Source: Actinomycetes bacterium (lineage in GTDB: Bacteria > Actinomycetota > Thermoleophilia > Solirubrobacterales > 70-9). Taken from it: DNA of 64,000 nt. The stretch lies in contig BOKP01000004.1 in NCBI GenBank assembly GCA_016861045.1, positions 310,001 to 374,000 on the forward strand. Direction: 5' to 3'. The position numbers were made by a program, and so were the translations under genes. Below the pieces are notes generated by a model. It saw only the letters and a program-made list of their open reading frames with translations. It did not search any database and was not told the DNA's origin. Below are positions 33,539 to 44,659 of the stretch, one piece after another; the first letter of the stretch is position 1; each line of letters opens with the position of its first letter.

Positions 33539-33631
33539 TGAAAATCCCGTTACCGGGACCGGGATGCGCCGGAGTTGCGCTGCGGCGTCACTACGATGGA
33601 TCGTGGCCGCGCCGATCGGCGGCTGCCTGAG

Positions 33632-34411
33632 ATGGCCTCGTCCACGGGAACACTCCGAGTCGCGGTGATCGACCGCGACGGCGCCTTCACCAAGGTCCTC
33701 GCCACCCGGCTCGAAGCCGCCGGCTGGCAGTACCGGGTGCTCGGCTCCGCCGTTCCCGTCGACGAGCTCGTGGCGTTGAAGCTGAACGCGCTCGTCGTCG
33801 ACCTCTCCGTGCTGCCGGCGGGGGAGGCGTGGCCGTTTCTGGAGCGGGTCGCCGGGATGCTGCCGAGCCTCGGCGTGATCGTCTGCACGAACGGGTCGAC
33901 CGTCGCCCAGCGGGTTCGCGGGCTGCGGCTCGGCGCCGACGACTGGATCGTCAAGCCCTCCCACCCCGAGGAGGTGATGGCGCGGATCGAGGCCGTGGTC
34001 CGGCGTCGCCGGCGTCGCTCCGGCTCCGGCCCCGAGCGCGGGCCGCTCGTCGTCGGCGAGCTCGAGATCCGCGCCGACCGCTACCAGGCGTTCGTGGCCG
34101 GCCGCAGCGCCGACCTCACGCGGCGCGAGTTCGAGCTGCTGCAGGCGCTCGCCGACGCGCACGGCAGCGTCATCGAGCGCGGCGAGATCTACCGTCGCGT
34201 CTGGGGCTACGAGATGGCCCACGGCGACCGCTCCGTCGACGTCTTCATCCGCAAGCTCCGGATCAAGCTCGAGCGCCTGTCGCCCGGGTGGACCTACATC
34301 CACACCCACTTCGGGGTCGGCTACCGCTTCGATCCCGAGCCGCACGACGCGAGCGCCGCCGCACCGGTGGCCGCGGCCGCGTCGCCCGACCGGACGCCGG
34401 TCGACGCCTGA
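33632..34411 (+). CDS. OmpR/PhoB-type response regulator (orphan)
   Basis: This 259-residue protein has a receiver domain (about 8-125) and a winged-helix DNA-binding domain (about 145-240). The phosphoacceptor is probably D57 in ALVVDLSVL. The acidic pocket is D14 and D16 in VIDRDG, T in VICTNGS, and K in WIVKPSHPEE. The C-terminal domain has LTRREFELLQALA and HFGVGYRF. Start uncertain: ATG 33596 or 33632; the second gives the usual leader before the first strand. No histidine kinase gene is adjacent. It stands directly before a PHO box and pstS, so a PhoP/RegX3-like role is likely. Confidence 0.85.
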   Translation: MASSTGTLRVAVIDRDGAFTKVLATRLEAAGWQYRVLGSAVPVDELVALKLNALVVDLSVLPAGEAWPFLERVAGMLPSLGVIVCTNGSTVAQRVRGLRLGADDWIVKPSHPEEVMARIEAVVRRRRRRSGSGPERGPLVVGELEIRADRYQAFVAGRSADLTRREFELLQALADAHGSVIERGEIYRRVWGYEMAHGDRSVDVFIRKLRIKLERLSPGWTYIHTHFGVGYRFDPEPHDASAAAPVAAAASPDRTPVDA

Positions 34412-34496: not shown

Positions 34497-35492
34497 ATGC
34501 AATCCGAAGAAGGAGTCAAGCCCAAATTGAGCTCGCCAAGGTTCATCCTGACCGGCGCCTGCGCCGGCCTGCTTGCGCTCGCCGCGTCGGCGTGCGGAGG
34601 CGACGACAGCACCGGATCGGAGGGCTCGGGCCCGACGTCCGCCGGCCCGTCCGGATCGCTCCACATCGATGGTTCGAGCACGGTCGGCCCGCTCACCCAG
34701 GCGGTCGCCGAGCAGTTCAACGCCGCCAACCCGGACGTCGAGATCTCGGTCGGGGAGTCCGGCACCGGCGGCGGCTTCGAGAAGTTCTGTGCCGGCGAGA
34801 CCGTGATCAACGACGCCTCGCGCCCGATCGAGTCCGAGGAGAAGGCGCTCTGCAAGAAGGGCGGCATCGACTACGCGCAGGTCCAGGTCGCCAACGACGC
34901 GCTGACCGTCGTCCTCAACAACGCCAACCCGGTCAGCTGTCTGACCGTCGATCAGCTCGCTGAGATCTGGAGGCCGGACGACCCGGTCGGGAGCTGGTCC
35001 GAGATCGCGGGCCTGGACCCGCCGTTCGATGCGGAGGTCGAGCGATTCGGGCCGGGGACAGACTCCGGCACGTTCGACTACTTCACCGACGCGATCAACG
35101 GTGAGGAGGGGGTCCAGACCAAGGACTACAACAACGTCGGCGAGGACGACAACCAGACCGTCACCGGGGTCGAGGGATCGGAAGGGGGAATCGGCTACTT
35201 CGGCTACTCGTACTTCAAGGAGAACGAAGGCAACCTGAAGGCCGCCGAGATCGACGGAGGGGACGGCTGCGTCGCCCCCTCCGAGGCGGCCGTCCAGGAC
35301 GGGACCTACGCCCCGCTCGGCCGGCCGCTGTTCATCTACGTGAACAGGGACGAGCTGAACGGCGACGAGGCCCTCGGCCCGTTCGTCCAGTACTACGTCG
35401 ACAACGTCAACGAGATCTCCCCCCAGGTCGGGTTCATCCCGATGACCGGGGAGCAGCAGTCGATGGCGAAGTCGGCGGTCGCGGGAAGCTAG
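34497..35492 (+). CDS. pstS: phosphate ABC transporter substrate-binding lipoprotein
   Basis: This 331-residue protein has a signal peptide with a lipobox (LALAASAC), so it is anchored by lipidation at about C33. [18 protein letters not shown] and [13 protein letters not shown] are phosphate-binding loops of PstS. It captures phosphate outside the membrane. ATG 34497 gives an unusual acidic leader ([10 protein letters not shown]). A TTG at 34527 preceded by AAGGAG could be the real start and would give a cleaner signal peptide. It is the first gene of the pst operon, after a PHO box. Confidence 0.95.
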
Positions 35493-35510
35493 GCAGGTAG
35501 GGACGAGTCG

Positions 35511-36470
35511 ATGGCGGCGGGCGGCATCGTGGCTCCCCGTTCCGCGGCTCGCGCGAGGCCGCGGTTGGTGGCCGCGAGTCCCCGTTACGGGGAGAGGCTG
35601 ATCGTCGCGGGGCTCGCGGCCTGCGCGGCGATCTCCGTCCTCACGACGACGGCGATCGTCGTCTCGCTGATCATCCCGTCGGTCGAGTTCTTCGGCGAAG
35701 TGCCGATCACGGACTTCCTGTTCGGCACCGATTGGGGGCCGACCTTCACCCCGCCGACCTTCGGCGTCCTCCCGATCGTCGTCGGCACGCTCAGCATCAC
35801 GCTCTGGTCGCTGGTCTTCGCGATCCCGATCGGAATCGGGTCGGCGCTGTACCTGTCCGAGTACGCGAGCCGGCGCACGCGACGGATCGTCAAGCCGGTG
35901 CTCGAGGTCCTCGCCGGGGTGCCGACGGTGGCCTTCGGATTCTTCGCGCTCGTCTTCATCACGCCCCAGATCCAGAGGATCTGGCCCGGCTTCCTCGGCG
36001 ACGGCCCCGGCATCTTCAGCGCCCTCGCCGGCGGCCTCGCGATCGGGCTGCTGATCGTGCCGATCGTCGCCACGGTCTCCGAGGACGCGATGAGCGCCGT
36101 CCCGGGCGTGCTCCGTGAGGGCGCCTACGCGCTCGGCGCGACCAGGGCGAAGGTGTCGACCCGGGTCGTCCTCCCGGCCGCGCTGTCGGGGGCCGTCGCG
36201 GCGGTGATCCTCGCGACCTCGCGGGCGATCGGCGAGACGATGGTGGTCCTGCTGGCCGCCGGCAACACGCCGAACCTGACCTTCAACCCGATCGAGCCGA
36301 TCCAGGCGATGACCGCGTTCATCGCGACGACGGCCACCGGGGACATCGCGACCGGAACGATCGCCTACGAGGCGGTCTTCGCGGTGGCCCTGCTGCTGTT
36401 CGCGTTGACGCTGCTGATGAACGTCCTCTCGGTCAAGCTCGTGCGCAGGTACCGCGAGGTCTACGAGTGA
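35511..36470 (+). CDS. pstC: phosphate ABC transporter permease PstC
   Basis: This 319-residue protein has six membrane helices and an ABC permease domain. The cytoplasmic coupling motif is EGAYALGATRAKVSTRVVLP. Pore-lining and PstC-type features include IPIGIGSALYLSEYA and VPTVAFGFFALV. It forms the phosphate channel with PstA. ATG 35511 lies 18 bases after the pstS stop. It overlaps pstA by four bases. Confidence 0.95.
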   Translation: MAAGGIVAPRSAARARPRLVAASPRYGERLIVAGLAACAAISVLTTTAIVVSLIIPSVEFFGEVPITDFLFGTDWGPTFTPPTFGVLPIVVGTLSITLWSLVFAIPIGIGSALYLSEYASRRTRRIVKPVLEVLAGVPTVAFGFFALVFITPQIQRIWPGFLGDGPGIFSALAGGLAIGLLIVPIVATVSEDAMSAVPGVLREGAYALGATRAKVSTRVVLPAALSGAVAAVILATSRAIGETMVVLLAAGNTPNLTFNPIEPIQAMTAFIATTATGDIATGTIAYEAVFAVALLLFALTLLMNVLSVKLVRRYREVYE

Positions 36471-37402
36471 GCAGCTTCGAGCCCCGCACCGGCCGGGCGC
36501 AGGTGGCGCTCGCGGGGGCCCGCGGGGTCACTGCCGACGTCCTCAGCGGTCAGCCGCGCAGGGACGTCGTCCGCAACTCGATCTTCGGGGCGCTCCTCTT
36601 CCTCGCGGTCATCATCGCGCTCGCCGGCCTGGCGCTGCTCGTCGGCGACAACCTCGTCAAGGGCTGGCCGCGGCTCACTCCGGAGCTGCTCGGCAACGGG
36701 ACCTCGTCGCTGCCGGACAACGCCGGGCTCCACTCGGCGATCATCGGGACGCTCTGGATCATGGCCTTCGTGATCCTCTTCATCGTTCCGATCGGCATCG
36801 GGTCGGCGCTCTACCTCGAGGAGTACGCGAGCGGTGAGAGCAGGCTCGCGCGGGCGGTCGAGGTCAACATCCAGAACCTCGCCGCCGTGCCGTCGATCAT
36901 CTACGGCCTGCTGGGGCTCGCGTTCATCGCGAGGGGCCCGCTCAGCCTCGGGTTCACCGTGCTGACGGCTTCGATCACGCTGGCGCTCCTGGTGCTGCCG
37001 GTCGTGGTCCTCGTCGCCCGCGAGGCGATCCGGGCCGTCCCGCCCTCGATCCGCGAGGGCTCGCTGGCGCTCGGCGCGACGCGCTGGCAGACGACGCGCA
37101 AGCAGGTCCTGCCGGCGGCGATCCCGGGCATCGCGACCGGCGTGATCCTCGCGATCTCGCGGGCGATCGGCGAGACGGCGCCGCTGATCCCGCTCGGCGC
37201 GGCGACGTTCGTCACCTACGACCCGAGCGGCCCGATGAGCGGCTTCACGGCGATGCCGCTGGTCATCTTCAACTGGGTCAAGCAGCCGCAGCCGGAGTTT
37301 CAGGTCCTGGCGGCCGCCGGCATCGTGGTCCTGCTCGCCGTCCTGATCGCGATGAACTCGTTCGCGATCTGGCTGCGCAATCGATACGAGCAACGCTGGT
37401 AG
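36467..37402 (+). CDS. pstA: phosphate ABC transporter permease PstA
   Basis: This 311-residue protein has six helices with the same pattern as PstC: IPIGIGSALYLEEYA, VPSIIYGLLGLA and the coupling loop EGSLALGATRWQTTRKQVLP. The GTG start overlaps the pstC stop (GTGA), so translation is coupled. It pairs with PstC in the membrane part of the importer. PstB follows after nine bases. Confidence 0.95.
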   Translation: MSSFEPRTGRAQVALAGARGVTADVLSGQPRRDVVRNSIFGALLFLAVIIALAGLALLVGDNLVKGWPRLTPELLGNGTSSLPDNAGLHSAIIGTLWIMAFVILFIVPIGIGSALYLEEYASGESRLARAVEVNIQNLAAVPSIIYGLLGLAFIARGPLSLGFTVLTASITLALLVLPVVVLVAREAIRAVPPSIREGSLALGATRWQTTRKQVLPAAIPGIATGVILAISRAIGETAPLIPLGAATFVTYDPSGPMSGFTAMPLVIFNWVKQPQPEFQVLAAAGIVVLLAVLIAMNSFAIWLRNRYEQRW

Positions 37403-37411
37403 GAGAATGGG

Positions 37412-38320
37412 GTGAATGAACTGACCGAGGAGGGCTTCGGCCGGGAGGTGGCGAGCGGCGAGGACGGCTTGGTCCGCGGGAGCGAGGCTGCGATCGCCGT
37501 GCGGCCGACCCGATTCCGCAGCGCGGGCGAGGTCGAGGATCTCGAGACGGTCTTCGAGCTCGACGACATCTCCGTCTCCTACGCCGGGGTGCCGGCGGTC
37601 AAGAACGTCTCGCTCGATGTCTTCAGGAACGAGGTGACCGCGCTGATCGGGCCCTCGGGGTGTGGCAAGAGCACGCTGATCCGCTGCCTGAACCGGATGA
37701 ACGACCTGGTGCCCACCGCCGAGGTCACGGGCAGGCTCCTCTACCGCGGCGAGGACCTCTACGGGCCGAGGGTCGATCCGGTTCAGGTCAGGAAGCTGAT
37801 CGGGATGGTCTTCCAGAAGCCGAACCCGTTCCCGAAGTCGATCTACGACAACGTCGCCTTCGGGCCACGCATCCTCAGGATGAAGGGCGACCTGGACGAG
37901 ATCGTCGAGAATGCCCTGCGGAGCGCCGCGCTCTGGGACGAGGCCAAGGACCGGCTCGACGGCAACGCGTTCGGCATGTCGGGTGGCCAGCAGCAGCGAC
38001 TCTGCATCGCCCGCTGCATCGCCGTCGAGCCCGACGTGATCCTGATGGACGAGCCCTGCTCGGCCCTCGACCCGATCTCGACCGCCAGGATCGAGGACCT
38101 GATGATGGAGCTCAAGCGGGACTTCTCGATCGTCATCGTCACCCACAACATGCAGCAGGCCGCCCGGGTCTCGGACCGCACCGCGCTCCTGATGGTCGAG
38201 CTCGATGCGACCGAGCAGAACCGGTGGGGGAGGATCGTCGAGCACGACTCGACCGAGAGGATCTTCACGAACCCGTCCGATCCCCGGACCGAGGACTACG
38301 TGAGCGGGAAGGTCGGCTGA
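37412..38320 (+). CDS. pstB: phosphate ABC transporter ATPase PstB
   Basis: This 302-residue ATPase has Walker [11 protein letters not shown]-loop [12 protein letters not shown], signature [13 protein letters not shown], Walker [14 protein letters not shown] and H-loop [24 protein letters not shown] and [10 protein letters not shown] are PstB-specific. It has an N-terminal extension of about 45 residues over E. coli PstB. It uses ATP to drive phosphate import. It starts with GTG and is followed by phoU after two bases. Confidence 0.96.
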
Positions 38321-39018: not shown

Positions 39019-39064
39019 TCCGCCCGTTCCCGCCTGCGGCCTCTGGGATGATCAGCCGAGGTTG

Positions 39065-39970
39065 ATGCTCTGCGCGGCGATCGACATCGGGTCCAACACG
39101 ACGCGGGTGCTCGTCGCCGAGCCCGAGGCGGAGACGCTGCGGACGGTGATGGAGCAGCGCGCCTACACGCGGATCGGCAAGGACGCGACGAGGGGCGGCG
39201 GGGCGATCTCGGACGAGAAGATCGGCGAGGTCGCAGACGTCGTCTGCACCCAGGTCCGCCTCGCGCACGAGCTCGGCGCGGAGTTGATCCGCATCGTCGC
39301 CACGGCAGCGATCCGCGAGGCCGCGAACGGGGCCGAGGTCGCGGCCGAGATCGGCGCGGCCGCCGGCGTGCCGGTCGAGGTCCTCGGCGACCACGAGGAG
39401 GGCCGTCTGTCGTTCATCGGCGCGACCAAGGCACTGGGGCATCCGGTCGCCGGGGAGATCGCGGTCGTGGACGTCGGCGGGGGCTCCTCGGAGGTGACGG
39501 TGGGGACGATCGACGCCGGCGTCGACGCGGTGCATTCGTTCGCGATCGGCTCGGGGGTGCTCAGCGAGGACCTGATCGTCGGCGACCCGCCCGGGCCGGC
39601 CGAGGTCCGCAAGCTGCGGGAGCGGATCGAGGACTTCTTCGCGGAGGTCGAGCTCGACCGTCCCGACCAGGCGGTCGCGGTCGGCGGCAGCGCGACCTCG
39701 CTGCGGCGGCTCGTCGGCGCCGTGCTCGAGTACGAGACGCTGGAGCGAGGCGTGCGGGTCCTGACCAGCGACCCGGCGGCGGCGGTCGCGAAGCGGTTCG
39801 AGCTCGACCCGCGGCGGGTCGAGGTGCTGACCGCGGGCATCCTGCTGCTCGAGCAGTTCGCGCAGATGCTCGGCCGGCCGCTTCAGATCGGCAAGGGCGG
39901 CCTCCGCGAGGGCGTGATCCTGGAGATGCTGAACGACGGCGGCAGCGCGGCCGGCAGCCGCGCCGCCTGA
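39065..39970 (+). CDS. ppx: exopolyphosphatase, Ppx/GppA family
   Basis: This 301-residue protein has the actin-like ATPase fold. The P-loop is AIDIGSNTTRVLVAE; the second phosphate-binding motif is VVDVGGGSSEVTVG; and EEGRLSFIGATKAL fits the Ppx/GppA pattern. It hydrolyses terminal phosphate from polyphosphate or pppGpp. It is the short form of about 300 residues that occurs in actinobacteria. TTG 39062 directly before ATG 39065 is an alternative. It is 46 bases after phoU. Confidence 0.93.
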   Translation: MLCAAIDIGSNTTRVLVAEPEAETLRTVMEQRAYTRIGKDATRGGGAISDEKIGEVADVVCTQVRLAHELGAELIRIVATAAIREAANGAEVAAEIGAAAGVPVEVLGDHEEGRLSFIGATKALGHPVAGEIAVVDVGGGSSEVTVGTIDAGVDAVHSFAIGSGVLSEDLIVGDPPGPAEVRKLRERIEDFFAEVELDRPDQAVAVGGSATSLRRLVGAVLEYETLERGVRVLTSDPAAAVAKRFELDPRRVEVLTAGILLLEQFAQMLGRPLQIGKGGLREGVILEMLNDGGSAAGSRAA

Positions 39971-39990: not shown

Positions 39991-40491
39991 GTGGCAAAGG
40001 CGCGGGAGGTCCCCGGCCTCGACCGCGACCTGCCCTTCGGCGAGGTCGCCGCCCGGGTGCTCGAGGTCCGCTGCCGCGAGCTCATCGACTCGTCCGCGGG
40101 CGTTCTCGACACGGCCGACGTCGAGCGGGTCCACGACATGCGCGTCGCCACGCGGCGCCTCCGGGCTGCGCTCGAGATCTTCCGGCCCTGCCTGCCCGCC
40201 GCCGCCGCGGCGACGTTGAAGGAGGTCAAGGGCCTTGCCGACGCGCTCGGCCGGCGCCGCGATGCCGACGTCGCGATCGCGATGCTCACCGACTTCGCCG
40301 CCGCGATGCCCTACCCCGACCGGCGCGGGATCGCGTCGCTGATCGACGAGTTGAGCGAGGACCAGCGGGTCGCCAACGGGGCGCTCGCCGCGCCCGCCGA
40401 TCCCCGGCACCTCGCCGGGCTCGAGGCCGCGATCGGCGGGCTGGCCGCTGCGGCCCGGGCCGCCGCGGCCGGCGGCGGGGAGCCGTCGTGA
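39991..40491 (+). CDS. half-length CHAD-domain protein (first of a pair)
   Basis: This 166-residue helical protein has the CHAD signature VHDMRVATRRLRAALEIF at about 49-66, with the basic residues that bind polyphosphate in known CHAD domains, and GRRRDADVAIAML. A usual CHAD domain has about 280 residues built from two such helical halves. Here the first half ends after 166 residues in an Ala-rich tail. The next gene begins at the stop (GTGA overlap) and holds the second half. Start GTG 39991, 20 bases after ppx. Confidence 0.85.
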   Translation: MAKAREVPGLDRDLPFGEVAARVLEVRCRELIDSSAGVLDTADVERVHDMRVATRRLRAALEIFRPCLPAAAAATLKEVKGLADALGRRRDADVAIAMLTDFAAAMPYPDRRGIASLIDELSEDQRVANGALAAPADPRHLAGLEAAIGGLAAAARAAAAGGGEPS

Positions 40492-41063
40492 AGGCGCGCG
40501 ACGTCGCCGGTCTCGACCCGGCCGGGCCCCTGTCCGCGAACGCGGCGCGGATCGTGCGGGTCCGCATCGACGAGCTGCGCTCGCTGGCCGCCGGGGCGCT
40601 CGAGCCGGGCGCCGCGCGGAGCCAGCACGACATGCGGATCGCCGCCAAGCGCCTCCGCTACGTGCTCGAGGCGACCGGGGGGTGCCTCGGCGCGCCGGCG
40701 GAGGCCGCCCGGCGGCGAGCGAGGGAGCTTCAGGACGCGCTCGGCGAGATCCACGACTGCGATGTCCTGCTGCCGCGAGTCGCCCGGCACCGCCGCGCCC
40801 TGCGCACGATCGACGCCGAGGCCGTGCGCGCCAGGGCCGGCGATGATCCCGACCTCGACCCGAAGCTCGCCGCGCGCGCGCCGCACCGGACCAGCTACCA
40901 CGGCCTCGACGTCCTCGAGGTCTACCTGCGGGCCCGCCGCGCCGTGCTCTTCGATCGCTTCGTCGCGCTCTGGGCCGAGATCGAGGAGCACGGTACCTGG
41001 GCCGATCTCATCGCCGTTGCGGAGCGTCCCGGCGGCGGCTCCGCCGCCGAGCGCGGTGTCTAG
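40488..41063 (+). CDS. half-length CHAD-domain protein (second of a pair)
   Basis: This 191-residue protein again contains the CHAD core, SQHDMRIAAKRLRYVLEAT, and ELQDALGEIHDCDVLL. Its start KARDVAGLDPAGPLSANAAR resembles the start of the upstream protein (KAREVPGLDRDLPFGEVAAR), which suggests that one arose from the other by duplication. Together the two would make a complete CHAD unit, perhaps as a heterodimer. CHAD proteins bind polyphosphate, which fits the location between ppx and ppk1. The ribosome couples the two genes through a four-base overlap. Confidence 0.85.
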   Translation: MKARDVAGLDPAGPLSANAARIVRVRIDELRSLAAGALEPGAARSQHDMRIAAKRLRYVLEATGGCLGAPAEAARRRARELQDALGEIHDCDVLLPRVARHRRALRTIDAEAVRARAGDDPDLDPKLAARAPHRTSYHGLDVLEVYLRARRAVLFDRFVALWAEIEEHGTWADLIAVAERPGGGSAAERGV

Positions 41064-41065
41064 AG

Positions 41066-43240
41066 TTGGCCGCGGTGCGCGAGCTCGAGATCGAACGCGA
41101 GGCGGCCGCCGGGAATGGTGCGCCGTTCGGCGCTGCGGCCGGGGCGGCGGCGGTCGAGCCGGTCGACCTCGAGGACTCCTGGCTGTACTTCAACCGTGAG
41201 CTTTCGTGGATGGACTTCAACGACCGCGTCCTGCAGCTCGCCGAGGACGCCAGCTTGCCGCTGCTCGAGCGGCTCAAGTTCTGCGCGATCTACGAGAGCA
41301 ACCTCGACGAGTTCTACATGGTGCGGGTGGCCGGGGTTCACGACAAGATCGTCGCCTCGCTGAGCGCCGGCGGGGCCGACGGGTTCCCGCCCGCGGAGGT
41401 CCTCGCGGCGATCCGCGAGCGCGCGATCGGTCAGCGCGCCCGATTGGAGGGCTGCCTGAGCGGCGAGCTGCTGCCGTCGCTCGGCGCCGCCGGGATCCGG
41501 ATCATCGACTACCACGACGCGAGCGCCGGAGAGCTGGCCGAGATCGACGCGCTCTTCAACGAGCGGGTCTTCCCGGCGCTGACGCCGCTCGTGTTCGGGG
41601 TCGGACGCCCGTTTCCCTACATCTCGAACCTGTCGCTGAGCCTGCTCGTGGCGCTGCGCGACCCGGTCCAGGACACGGAGGTGATGGCCCGGGTCAAGGT
41701 GCCGAAGGAGCTGATGCGGCGCTACCTGCCGATCGGCGACGGCAACACGTTCGTCCCGCTCGAGGACGTGATCTCGCACAACCTCGAGGCCCTCTTCCCG
41801 GGCATGGAGGTGATCGGGCACACGCTCTTCCGGGTCACCCGCGACACCGACTACGACGTCTCCGACGAGGCCGATGACGTGCGCCGCGCCGTCGAGGAGG
41901 AGATCCGCCGTCGCCGCTTCGGCGAGGTGATCCGGCTCGAGCTCCAGGGCCGGCTCGAGCCGCGTTTGCGCGAGCGCCTCGTCTCGCTGCTCGGGATCGG
42001 GGCCGACCAGGTCTACGAGGTGGGCTGGGCCGGCATGGACGATCTCTTCGACGTCGCCGGGATCGCCGGCTTCGACGAGCTTCGCTACCCGGCGTTCTCG
42101 CCGGTCACGCAGACGCGGCTGCAGGCTCCGGAGGGGCAGGAGCCGGATCTGTTCGCGGCGATCCGCGAGGGCGACATCCTCGTCCATCACCCCTACGACT
42201 CCTTCCAGACCTCGGTCGAGGCGTTCGTGAGCCAGGCGGTCAACGACCCCGACGTGCTCGCGATCAAGCAGACCGTCTACAGGACCAGCGACGACTCGCC
42301 GCTGGTGCCGGCGCTGATCACCGCCTCGGAGGCCGGCAAGCAGGCGGTCTGCATGGTCGAGCTGAAGGCGCGCTTCGACGAGCAGGCGAACATCCGCTGG
42401 GCGAAGAAGCTCGAGCAGGCCGGGGTCCACGTCGTCTACGGCATCCCGGCCCTGAAGACGCACGCGAAGTGCATCCTCGTCGCCCGCCGCGAGGGTGACG
42501 GCGTCCGTCACTACGCCCATGTCGGCACCGGCAACTACAACCCGCGGACCGCGCGGCTCTACACCGACCTCGGCCTGTTCACGGTCGACCCCGGGATCTG
42601 CTCCGACATCGCCGAGATGTTCAACTACCTGACCGGCTACGCGCGCCCGCAGAACTACCGCAAGGCGCTGATCGCGCCGTTCAACCTCGCCGAGGACCTG
42701 ATCGCCGAGATCGACCGGACGATCGCCGCCCACTCGCCCGGGCGCCCGGCGCGGATCCGGATGAAGATGAACTCGCTGCTCGACCCGAGGACGATCAGGG
42801 CCCTCTACCGGGCCTCGCAGGCCGGCGTCGAGGTCCAGCTCAACGTCCGCGGCATCTGCGCGCTGCGGCCCGGCGTCGAGGGCGTGTCGGAGAACATCGA
42901 GGTGGTCTCGGTCCTCGGCCGCTTCCTCGAGCACTCGCGGATCTACTGCTTCGAGCGTCCCGACGGAACCAGCATCTACACTGGCTCCGCCGACCTGATG
43001 CCGCGCAACCTCTACAACCGCGTGGAGCTCGTGATCCCGGTCGAGGACGAGGCGGTCCGCCAGGAGCTGATCGCGATCCTCGACCTCAGCCTCGGCGACC
43101 AGAGCGGCGCCTGGACGCTCGACGCCGAGGGCGAGTGGATACGGCGGCGCCCGCCGGCGGGCGGCGCCGCCGCCGACGTGCAGGCGACGATGATCGAGCG
43201 CAGCTCCGCCCGCGCCGCCGAGGCGCCGCAGACTCTCTAG
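41066..43240 (+). CDS. ppk1: polyphosphate kinase 1
   Basis: This 724-residue protein has the full PPK1 architecture: an N-terminal helical domain (YFNRELSWMDFNDRVLQLA), a head domain, and two phospholipase-D-like C-terminal domains. The phosphorylated histidine is H466 in LKTHAKCILVARR; H623 in LEHSRIYCF is the second conserved histidine. HVGTGNYNPRTARLYTDLGL is another signature. It builds polyphosphate from ATP. Start TTG at 41066 or GTG at 41075; no ribosome site decides. It follows the CHAD pair by two bases, so polyphosphate synthesis, binding and hydrolysis are in one transcription unit. Confidence 0.96.
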   Translation: MAAVRELEIEREAAAGNGAPFGAAAGAAAVEPVDLEDSWLYFNRELSWMDFNDRVLQLAEDASLPLLERLKFCAIYESNLDEFYMVRVAGVHDKIVASLSAGGADGFPPAEVLAAIRERAIGQRARLEGCLSGELLPSLGAAGIRIIDYHDASAGELAEIDALFNERVFPALTPLVFGVGRPFPYISNLSLSLLVALRDPVQDTEVMARVKVPKELMRRYLPIGDGNTFVPLEDVISHNLEALFPGMEVIGHTLFRVTRDTDYDVSDEADDVRRAVEEEIRRRRFGEVIRLELQGRLEPRLRERLVSLLGIGADQVYEVGWAGMDDLFDVAGIAGFDELRYPAFSPVTQTRLQAPEGQEPDLFAAIREGDILVHHPYDSFQTSVEAFVSQAVNDPDVLAIKQTVYRTSDDSPLVPALITASEAGKQAVCMVELKARFDEQANIRWAKKLEQAGVHVVYGIPALKTHAKCILVARREGDGVRHYAHVGTGNYNPRTARLYTDLGLFTVDPGICSDIAEMFNYLTGYARPQNYRKALIAPFNLAEDLIAEIDRTIAAHSPGRPARIRMKMNSLLDPRTIRALYRASQAGVEVQLNVRGICALRPGVEGVSENIEVVSVLGRFLEHSRIYCFERPDGTSIYTGSADLMPRNLYNRVELVIPVEDEAVRQELIAILDLSLGDQSGAWTLDAEGEWIRRRPPAGGAAADVQATMIERSSARAAEAPQTL

Positions 43241-43261: not shown

Positions 43262-44659
43262 ATGCGACACGACGCGCACGGATACTGGATCGAGGAGGCC
43301 GGTCTCGAGGGCTCGCCGTCGCTGCCCGCGCTCGCCGCCGACGCGAGCGCCGACGTCGTCGTCGTCGGCGGCGGCTACACGGGGCTGTGGGCGGCGTGGT
43401 GGCTGAAGCGGCAGGAGCCGGACGTCAGGGTCGTCCTGCTCGAGACCGATCGCTGCGGCTTCGGCCCCAGCGGCCGCAACGGCGGCTTCGTCAACTCGAT
43501 GTCGTTCAGCCTGCCGACCCTGCGGCAGCGCTTCGGCGACCGCGCCGCGATCGCGATGGCCCATGCCGGCGACGAGTCGGTGCTCGCGATCAGGGACTTC
43601 TGCTGCGAGCAGGAGGTCGACGCGTGGTTCGTCCACGGCGGCTACCTGCAGGCCTCGACGGCGCCCCACTTCGACGGCGCCTGGGACCCCGTCGCCGCCG
43701 CCTGCTCCGAGCTCGGCGAGGAGGGGCGCATCGAGGTCCTCGACCGCGCGGCGGTGCGCGCCCGCTGCGACTCGCCGCTGTTCCGCTGCGGGGCCTTCTA
43801 TCCGATGGGGGCCACCGTGCAGCCGGCGCGCCTCGCGGCCGGCCTCCGCGATCGCGTCCTCGCCGCCGGGGTCGAGATCCACGAGCACACCCGGGTCGAC
43901 TCGCTGAGCGAGCGGGACGGCGGGGTGGTCGTCGAGACTCCCGGCGGGCGCGTCCGGGCCGGCGCCGCCGTCCTCGGCGCCGGCGGCTCGCTGCTCCGCT
44001 TCCGGCCGCTGCGGCGGTCGCTGACCGTTACCTCGAGCCACATGGTGATCACCGAGCCGGTGCCCGACCTGCTCGAGGAGCTCGGCTGGACCGGCGGCGA
44101 GTGCATCACCGACTCCCGGCACATGATCCACTACTTCCGGACGACCCGGGACGGCCGCATCGCGTTCGGCTGGGGCGGCGGCCGGATCGTCCGCGGCGCC
44201 AACGTCCACGGCCGCGCCGAGATCGACCCGGACGTGACCACCGCGGTGCTCGAGCACCTCCACCGCTTCTTCCCGCAGCTCGAAGGCCGCCCGCCCGCGC
44301 ACGCGTGGGGCGGCCCGATCGACGTCTCCCCGACGCACCTGCCGGTCGTGCGCACGGTCGGCGACCGCAGCTTCGCCGGCTTCGGCTACACCGGCCACGG
44401 GGTCGGCCCCTCGCAGATGGTCGGGCACGCGCTCGCGTCGATGGCGCTCGACCGCCGCGACGACTTCACCGCGCTGCCGATCGTCGATCCGCCCACGGTC
44501 AACGTCCCGCCGGAGCCGTTCCGCGTCGCGGGCGGGGCGATCATCCGTCGCGCGATCATCAGCAAGGAGACGGCGGAGGAGCGGGACCGCGCTCCCGGGG
44601 CGATCGCCAGGATCCTGAGCGGGATCCCGGAGCGGATCGGCATCCACGTCGGCCGCTGA
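43262..44659 (+). CDS. FAD-dependent amine oxidase (PuuB-like, DAO family)
   Basis: This 465-residue flavoprotein has the Rossmann motif VVVVGGGYTGLWAAWWL at about 33-49 and the DAO-family GPSGRNGGFVNS. The C-terminal GFGYTGHGVGPSQMVGH closes the FAD site. It is closest in pattern to gamma-glutamylputrescine oxidase and related amine oxidases, which make an aldehyde, ammonia and hydrogen peroxide. The neighbouring polyamine-type transporter and aldehyde dehydrogenases support an amine substrate. A hairpin follows its stop. No gamma-glutamylputrescine synthetase is in the window, so the true substrate is open. Confidence 0.88.
   Translation: MRHDAHGYWIEEAGLEGSPSLPALAADASADVVVVGGGYTGLWAAWWLKRQEPDVRVVLLETDRCGFGPSGRNGGFVNSMSFSLPTLRQRFGDRAAIAMAHAGDESVLAIRDFCCEQEVDAWFVHGGYLQASTAPHFDGAWDPVAAACSELGEEGRIEVLDRAAVRARCDSPLFRCGAFYPMGATVQPARLAAGLRDRVLAAGVEIHEHTRVDSLSERDGGVVVETPGGRVRAGAAVLGAGGSLLRFRPLRRSLTVTSSHMVITEPVPDLLEELGWTGGECITDSRHMIHYFRTTRDGRIAFGWGGGRIVRGANVHGRAEIDPDVTTAVLEHLHRFFPQLEGRPPAHAWGGPIDVSPTHLPVVRTVGDRSFAGFGYTGHGVGPSQMVGHALASMALDRRDDFTALPIVDPPTVNVPPEPFRVAGGAIIRRAIISKETAEERDRAPGAIARILSGIPERIGIHVGR

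What the first reader, a model, noticed from the sequence alone, without database searches (positions are those of the whole stretch)
39991..41063. CHAD domain split into two overlapping genes beside ppx and ppk1
Two successive genes each hold one CHAD half-domain with a similar start and the same basic core motif. They overlap by four bases. Normal CHAD proteins are single chains, so this could be a natural heterodimer or a gene-fission intermediate.
Basis: partly seen in the sequence, partly recalled or inferred. Interest (0 to 1): 0.55.

Follow-up and report, generated by a model that had tools for sequence, protein, structure and literature searches.

The report
Polyphosphate-binding CHAD protein made in halves
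A polyphosphate-binding protein that is normally one chain is encoded here, and in many related bacteria, as two overlapping genes that each make one half, so the two products probably have to pair up to hold polyphosphate.

Summary
Gene 1 (39991-40491) is the N-terminal and gene 2 (40488-41063) the C-terminal half of a CHAD domain (Pfam PF05235), overlapping by GTGA between ppx and ppk1 in a pst-phoU-ppx-ppk1 cluster. It is neither a sequencing error nor a fission caught in the act: all 13 split pairs checked in the window's family keep a 4-base overlap, and 77 of 80 named loci found with the split C half carry a separate N half just upstream, including the complete Svornostia abyssi chromosome. 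The cut falls between CHAD's two four-helix bundles. The polyP-contacting residues known from single-chain Chlorobium CHAD are divided between the chains and kept in 77-78 of 78 pairs. A sister genus has one fused gene at the same place; it nests inside the split clades and has lost key polyP residues, so it looks like a re-fusion. Best reading: a co-translated heterodimer that rebuilds the CHAD polyP site. Heterodimer and polyP binding are inferred, not shown. New variant of a known kind; seven full-text searches listed no report of it.

The parts
39991..40491 (+). CHAD-N gene: N-terminal four-helix bundle of CHAD, 166 aa, GTG start
   Evidence: ORF; Pfam CHAD profile 6-135, 86 bits; AlphaFold2 model of this protein pLDDT 96.3, pTM 0.89, aligned to residues 207-370 of CtCHAD 6qv7
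40488..41063 (+). CHAD-C gene: C-terminal four-helix bundle of CHAD, 191 aa, GTG start
   Evidence: ORF; Pfam CHAD profile 141-224, 62.8 bits; ends 2 bases before the listed ppk1 ORF
40488..40491 (+). GTGA overlap: start codon of CHAD-C and stop codon of CHAD-N
   Evidence: sequence; 4-base overlap in 13 of 13 split pairs of the family and 56 of 77 pairs in named loci
40477..40482 (+). GGGGAG, Shine-Dalgarno-like, before the CHAD-C start
   Evidence: sequence; 48 of 77 pairs have GGAG, GAGG or AGGA shortly before the C start, against 17% background inside N genes
40132..40155 (+). stretch with the codons of CHAD-N H48, R51 and R55, equivalent to CtCHAD His253, Arg256 and Arg260
   Evidence: alignment; H 77/78, R 78/78, R 78/78 in split N halves; effect of mutation in CtCHAD from PMC6537752
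40258..40260 (+). codon of CHAD-N R90, equivalent to CtCHAD Arg296
   Evidence: alignment; R in 78 of 78 split N halves
40656..40661 (+). codons of CHAD-C R57-Y58, equivalent to CtCHAD Arg418-Tyr419
   Evidence: alignments; R and Y in 78 of 78 split C halves
39062..39970 (+). ppx (exopolyphosphatase, Ppx/GppA)
   Evidence: Pfam PF02541, 4e-34
41066..43240 (+). ppk1 (polyphosphate kinase 1)
   Evidence: Pfam PF17941, PF13090, PF02503, PF13089
38323..39018 (+). phoU
   Evidence: TIGR02135 over cut-off; start
34497..38320 (+). pstS-pstC-pstA-pstB phosphate importer
   Evidence: TIGR02136, TIGR02138, TIGR00974, TIGR00972, each over its cut-off
33575..34411 (+). OmpR/PhoB-type response regulator at the head of the cluster
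   Evidence: NCBIfam RpaB/PhoB-like matches, all below the models' cut-offs

Best explanation
The two genes encode the two four-helix bundles of one CHAD polyphosphate-binding module as separate chains. They are translated together (stop and start overlap in GTGA, with a ribosome-binding-site-like GGGGAG inside gene 1). They associate as a pseudo-twofold heterodimer that rebuilds the basic cleft or pore of single-chain CHAD proteins: gene 1 supplies His48, Arg51, Arg55 and Arg90, gene 2 supplies Arg57 and Tyr58. Sitting in a pst-phoU-ppx-ppk1 cluster, the heterodimer most likely acts as a phosin: it binds polyP made by PPK1, holds or organises it, and presents it to PPX or PPK1 when phosphate supply changes. 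Shown here: gene structure, homology, conservation, the split point, operon context, and a predicted joined fold of a relative. Inferred: heterodimer formation, polyP binding, translational coupling, and the role in polyP turnover.
For: Complementary Pfam halves above cut-off. No other CHAD in the genome. In the family search (50 genomes) 13 genomes have the pair as adjacent separate frames, and 13 of 13 overlap by 4 bases. 77 of 80 named loci have the pair, also where no ppx or ppk was detected in the fetched stretch (12 of 77). dN is below dS for both genes (window against L053: N 0.25/0.71, C 0.26/0.54). The model of the window's N protein aligns to CtCHAD 207-370, and a joined model of a relative (L107 read-through, pLDDT 92.0, pTM 0.87) aligns to CtCHAD 207-522 with Z 27.3 over 313 residues; the paper gives the bundles as 207-373 and 374-522. 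Residues whose mutation weakens polyP binding in CtCHAD are kept in 77-78 of 78 pairs, on both chains. In the half-domain tree all 142 rows separate into N and C sides, support 98/96. Sister genus g2 has one fused ORF at the same ppx-ppk1 site.
Against: No binding or interaction data. The joined model was folded as one chain with fused homologues in its alignment, so it cannot show that two free chains associate. A 4-base overlap is ordinary in compact operons (pstC/pstA here overlap the same way), so it argues for co-translation at most. 21 of 77 pairs have another spacing, from an 8-base overlap to an 18-base gap. Each half carries its own H-x-x-R-x-x-x-R/K motif, so homodimers are not excluded. 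The g2 fusion lost part of the site, so it is no proof that fused N-C binds polyP in this lineage.
Confidence: 0.8

Rival explanations
1. Each half works alone: CHAD-N and CHAD-C each form a homodimer with a symmetric polyP site, and they are co-transcribed only because both act on polyP.
For: Both halves keep their own H-x-x-R-x-x-x-R/K-R-L-R motif, and N alone is predicted as a confident compact bundle. The bundles of CHAD superpose at 2.2-2.7 A (paper), so a symmetric homodimer is geometrically plausible.
Against: N and C each stay faithful to their own half of single-chain CHAD (98/96 N|C split), and the Tyr58 position is specific to C. In the 13 split genomes of the family no unpaired half passed Pfam's cut-off (one weak unread hit in G022, 19.9 bits, lies below it). 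A sister genus fuses N to C.
Confidence: 0.12
2. Sequencing frameshift or recent gene decay: the two ORFs are one broken CHAD gene.
For: The halves lie in different frames and end-to-end, and single-chain CHAD is the rule in the rest of the phylum sample.
Against: Same split in independent assemblies: 13 of 13 in the family, 77 of 80 named loci, among them a complete chromosome (L070, CP088295.1) and three Patulibacter isolates (L074, L092, L094). Gene 2 has its own recurrent start peptide. dN is below dS in both genes.
Confidence: 0.01
3. The two-gene form is the older state, a relic from before the N and C bundles fused into ordinary CHAD.
For: With the root between N and C halves, fused N halves fall inside a series of split N halves. 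The start peptides of both genes are alike, as after duplication of a half-sized gene.
Against: The nesting is not firm: split N halves (with g2) held as one clade are not rejected (AU p 0.174), and split C with g2 is one clade (95/82). Single-chain CHAD is known from bacteria, archaea and a plant (paper), which favours an early fusion.
Confidence: 0.07
4. The fused gene of sister genus g2 is the retained ancestral state, and the split arose many times.
For: g2 has one ORF at the same place in the operon.
Against: g2 halves are single clades inside the split clades, next to the window's family, for N (100/99; with the window row 88/87) and C (100/99; 99/93 with seven split rows of the family). 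The g2 linker appears, by eye, to keep a relic of the second gene's start peptide. Otherwise many independent fissions with the same overlap would be needed.
Confidence: 0.08

Closest known systems
Single-chain CHAD polyP-binding domain, CtCHAD of Chlorobium tepidum (PDB 6qv7, 6qva, 3e0s; PMC6537752)
   Same: Both four-helix bundles, the fold over the whole length (joined model of a relative, Z 27.3 over 313 residues), and the mutagenised polyP residues His253, Arg256, Arg260, Arg296, Arg418 and Tyr419 have equivalents
   Different: There one chain; here two chains from two overlapping genes, cut at the boundary between the bundles
Phosin PptA of Streptomyces (PDB 6rn5; PMC8003754, passages)
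   Same: CHAD gene next to ppk in a phosphate-regulated operon; fold match Z 19.0
   Different: Single chain downstream of ppk with a nudix gene; here split, upstream of ppk1, behind pst-phoU-ppx
E. coli ygiF (CYTH-CHAD; PDB 5a60)
   Same: CHAD fold (Z 14.6)
   Different: Fused to a CYTH/TTM domain; no CYTH match in either half here
Fused CHAD of the sister genus g2 (L004, L049, L052 and others)
   Same: Same place between ppx and ppk1 in the three loci read with flanks (L048, L049, L052); its halves nest beside the window's family
   Different: One ORF; His48 and Arg51 equivalents lost in 14 of 14, C Lys54 lost in 14 of 14 (13 Glu, 1 Ala)

Membership tests
CHAD domain (PF05235) | Sequence match above the curated cut-off | tested here: met
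   86.0 and 62.8 bits against a cut-off of 25.6
CHAD domain (PF05235) | Two four-helix bundles related by pseudo-twofold symmetry in one polypeptide | tested here: not met
   Each bundle is a separate gene product; the pair together has both bundles (joined stand-in from L107)
CHAD domain (PF05235) | Conserved basic and His residues of the polyP site | tested here: met
   Kept in 77-78 of 78 split pairs, divided over the two chains
CHAD domain (PF05235) | Fold of solved CHAD structures | tested here: met
   Joined model of a relative Z 27.3 with 6qv7 and 23.6 with 6qv5; window N alone Z 14.9 with 6qv5 and 11.4 with 6qv7, generic helical bundles reaching 11.1. The window's C protein was not folded
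CHAD domain (PF05235) | Binding of inorganic polyphosphate | not testable with these tools
   Needs a binding assay
Phosin (polyP-granule-associated CHAD protein) | Localisation to polyP granules | not testable with these tools
   Only operon context with ppx, ppk1 and pst
CYTH-CHAD (ygiF type) | N-terminal CYTH/TTM domain | tested here: not met
   CHAD is the only Pfam match in either protein at E up to 1

The most novel reading that the evidence does not exclude
The split is functional: the two chains form a reversible clamp that closes around a polyP chain. In single-chain CtCHAD the polymer runs through a central pore; as two chains the module could load onto the middle of a long polymer without a free end, with assembly itself depending on polyP. 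It would then act as a polyP-responsive switch inside the pst-ppx-ppk1 operon.
Probability: 0.15. Interest if true: 0.75.

Novelty: new variant of a known kind. Interest (0 to 1): 0.5.

Why it matters
CHAD is a structurally characterised polyP-binding module, yet how its two pseudo-symmetric bundles cooperate, and what CHAD proteins do in vivo, is open (PMC6537752, Discussion). A naturally split CHAD, kept through much of a bacterial order, separates the two half-sites so that each can be tested alone and together, and may yield a two-part polyP sensor. The sister genus with a re-fused and degraded site is a natural control.

Tried and rejected
Frameshift error or pseudogene: rejected by conservation and by dN below dS. 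Two copies of one half: rejected, since Pfam positions are complementary and N and C separate in the tree. Further fused forms in genus g27: seven loci read (L213-L219); six have two half hits in one ORF, L218 one half hit, and none has a detected ppx, ppk or phoU, so I count them as a different CHAD. First tree had long-branch trouble: 12 fused N halves joined fused C halves. In one search I dropped those 12 pairs plus L121, L199 and L003 (15 of 86 pairs; the 86 were a sample of the 156 pairs). Alignment A3 was discarded because MAFFT laid C halves on the N half; A6 was used instead. In one search my phoU query was in a wrong frame, so its PHOU rows are void; corrected. In one search the ppk test missed genes whose ORF opens early; recounted. 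In one search only the five commonest residues were printed; one search gives the full counts. Co-variation between N and C was not run: too few pairs and no model coordinates. No plasmid record matches CHAD-C at the default limit.

The class-wide C-half search and the order search were cut in their listings; I used them for leads, not counts. In one search the pair of hits in G198 and weak, partial or fragmentary hits outside the class (G434, G448, G453, G529, G532, G554, G593, G600 and others) were not read. Start codons were chosen by a script that prefers an overlap start, so single junction values can be off.

Full report
What is there. Two + strand ORFs, 39991-40491 and 40488-41063, overlap by GTGA. 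Pfam assigns both to CHAD (PF05235), the first to profile positions 6-135 and the second to 141-224 of 228, both far above the cut-off. They lie between ppx (39062-39970) and ppk1 (41066-43240). Upstream, on the same strand, are a PhoB-like response regulator (below the models' cut-offs), pstS, pstC, pstA, pstB and phoU. The genome (2.70 Mb in 5 contigs) has no other CHAD match.

It is not an error. In the family search (50 genomes, 43 with CHAD), 13 genomes, the window's included, have the N and C halves as adjacent separate frames; all 13 overlap by four bases, NTGA. One scan of named genomes with the split C half kept the best 80 of 511 loci. Of these 80, 77 have a separate N half just upstream, one is fused (L129), and two (L067, L106) gave no full pair; in both the match lies at a contig end, and for L106 one search found a partial N half. 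The 77 junctions are: overlaps of 4 (56), 8 (3) and 1 (4); gaps of 1 (4), 3 (1), 4 (8) and 18 (1). Because the loci were picked by similarity to a split C half, this does not measure how common the split is. They include the complete Svornostia abyssi chromosome (L070) and Patulibacter medicamentivorans, minatonensis and americanus (L074, L092, L094). Many titles name Solirubrobacterales, Solirubrobacteraceae, Patulibacter or Thermoleophilaceae; others are broad (Actinomycetota) or doubtful (Bifidobacterium breve, Chlamydiae). L130-L132 are titled Ktedonobacteraceae or Thermomicrobiales, L126-L128 Armatimonadetes or Chthonomonadaceae. Twelve further loci from other families of the order and class are split too (L220-L231).

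How wide it is. In a phylum-wide sample (198 genomes, 87 with CHAD, 11 of these in the window's class) N and C appear as separate hits in G000, G078, G191, G196, G203 and G216 and as one hit across a TGA in G211 (two ORFs in L228), all of the window's class. Outside the class the strong hits are single frames over most of the profile; partial and weak hits there, and G198 inside the class, I did not read.

Both halves are under selection. Between the window and L053, dN/dS values are 0.25/0.71 for N and 0.26/0.54 for C (Nei-Gojobori, possibly saturated). A GGAG, GAGG or AGGA lies shortly before the C start in 48 of 77 pairs, against 17% inside N genes.

Where the cut falls. The paper on CtCHAD gives the two bundles as residues 207-373 and 374-522 (PMC6537752; Results parts 1 and 2 of 3 and Discussion read). 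The AlphaFold2 model of the window's N protein (59-row alignment, pLDDT 96.3, pTM 0.89) aligns to RcCHAD 10-167 (Z 14.9) and CtCHAD 207-370 (Z 11.4); generic helical bundles reach 11.1, so the range matters more than the score. For the pair I used a relative, L107, whose halves share a frame with one TGA between them. The read-through chain folded with pLDDT 92.0 and pTM 0.87, residues 165-168 at the junction being under pLDDT 50. It aligns to CtCHAD 207-522 with Z 27.3 over 313 residues; the best non-CHAD row has Z 7.5. Fused homologues were in that alignment, so this shows a compatible fold, not binding between free chains. The window's C protein was not folded.

The polyP site is divided. 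Mutating His253, Arg256, Arg260, then also Arg296 and Arg418/Tyr419, weakens polyP binding of CtCHAD. The alignments place the first four on gene 1 (H48, R51, R55, R90) and the last two on gene 2 (R57, Y58). Over 78 split pairs (77 loci and the window) H48 is kept in 77 (L127 has K) and each of the others in 78. Among 64 fused pairs used for comparison H48, R51, R90 and Y58 are kept in 64, R57 in 42. So each chain carries part of one site.

Context. Of the 77 pairs, 56 have ppk downstream and 2 upstream, and 37 have ppx within 2 kb upstream; 65 have one or the other somewhere in the fetched stretch (a phmmer count for ppx gave 41). Some contigs end too soon to tell. In the 12 without either, the halves are still neighbours.

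History. In a tree of half-domains (142 rows, 83 columns) every N half, split or fused, lies on one side and every C half on the other (98/96). Split C plus g2 C is one clade (95/82). Split N is not resolved, and one clade is not rejected (AU p 0.174). In sister genus g2 the same operon position holds one fused ORF (L048, L049, L052). Its halves form single clades inside the split clades beside the window's family, and its linker seems, by eye, to retain a remnant of the second gene's start peptide. The simplest history is one old split followed by a re-fusion in g2. In g2 the His48 and Arg51 equivalents are gone in 14 of 14, and C Lys54 is Glu in 13 and Ala in 1, while R57 and Y58 are kept in 14: the re-fused protein may no longer bind polyP in the usual way. 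Whether the split itself came from a fused ancestor is not settled by these 83 columns; the wide spread of single-chain CHAD makes that likelier.

Similar starts. The first 12 residues of the two chains are as alike (mean 32%) as their cores (34%) in the 68 of 78 pairs that could be anchored; random 12-mers 8%. The C-half profile aligns part of this peptide to the N-terminus of CtCHAD, not to its linker. This fits an origin by tandem duplication and reciprocal loss, but is not proof.

How it probably works. An obligate N:C heterodimer, made together from one message, rebuilds the CHAD site and holds polyP next to the enzymes that make and degrade it. The phosin PptA of Streptomyces, in a Pho-regulated ppk operon, is the nearest studied analogue (PMC8003754, passages).

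Literature. Searches for CHAD domain with polyphosphate, split, Thermoleophilia genera, gene fission, heterodimer/phosin terms, PptA, and ppx plus ppk1 listed no paper on a two-gene CHAD, judged from titles and abstract starts. A word search of PMC6544083 finds no CHAD; passages of PMC8233210 and PMC10892726 treat CHAD as one domain. Only open-licence papers were searched.

Noticed in passing
L004, L006-L008, L010-L012, L014, L016, L026, L049, L052, L209, L212 (sister genus g2): Re-fused CHAD of g2 has lost the His48 and Arg51 equivalents (14 of 14) and swapped C Lys54 for Glu in 13 of 14: a polyP site decaying after fusion?
   Followed up: partly
L107:4500-5627; L228:3959-5074: Split pairs whose halves share one reading frame with a single TGA between them, so rare read-through would give a fused CHAD.
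   Followed up: partly
L033, L034, L035, L039, L043, L044 CHAD-C C-termini: CHAD-C of relatives carries a long Ala/Glu/Arg-rich, probably helical tail that the window's CHAD-C lacks.
   Followed up: no
window 35511-37402: pstC and pstA also overlap by four bases, so such overlaps are ordinary in this operon.
   Followed up: no
window 43262-44659: FAD oxidoreductase next to ppk1, best match to a putative aminophosphonate oxidoreductase model (TIGR03329) but well below its cut-off (345.8 against 632.8 bits).
   Followed up: no
L104, L109: Split pair placed downstream of ppk instead of upstream, the order reported for Streptomyces pptA.
   Followed up: no
L057, L058, L059, L096 between CHAD-C and ppk1: About 1.7 to 2.6 kb between CHAD-C and the ppk ORF, with an MFS transporter (L059) and an M1-like peptidase (L057) among the ORFs there.
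   Followed up: partly
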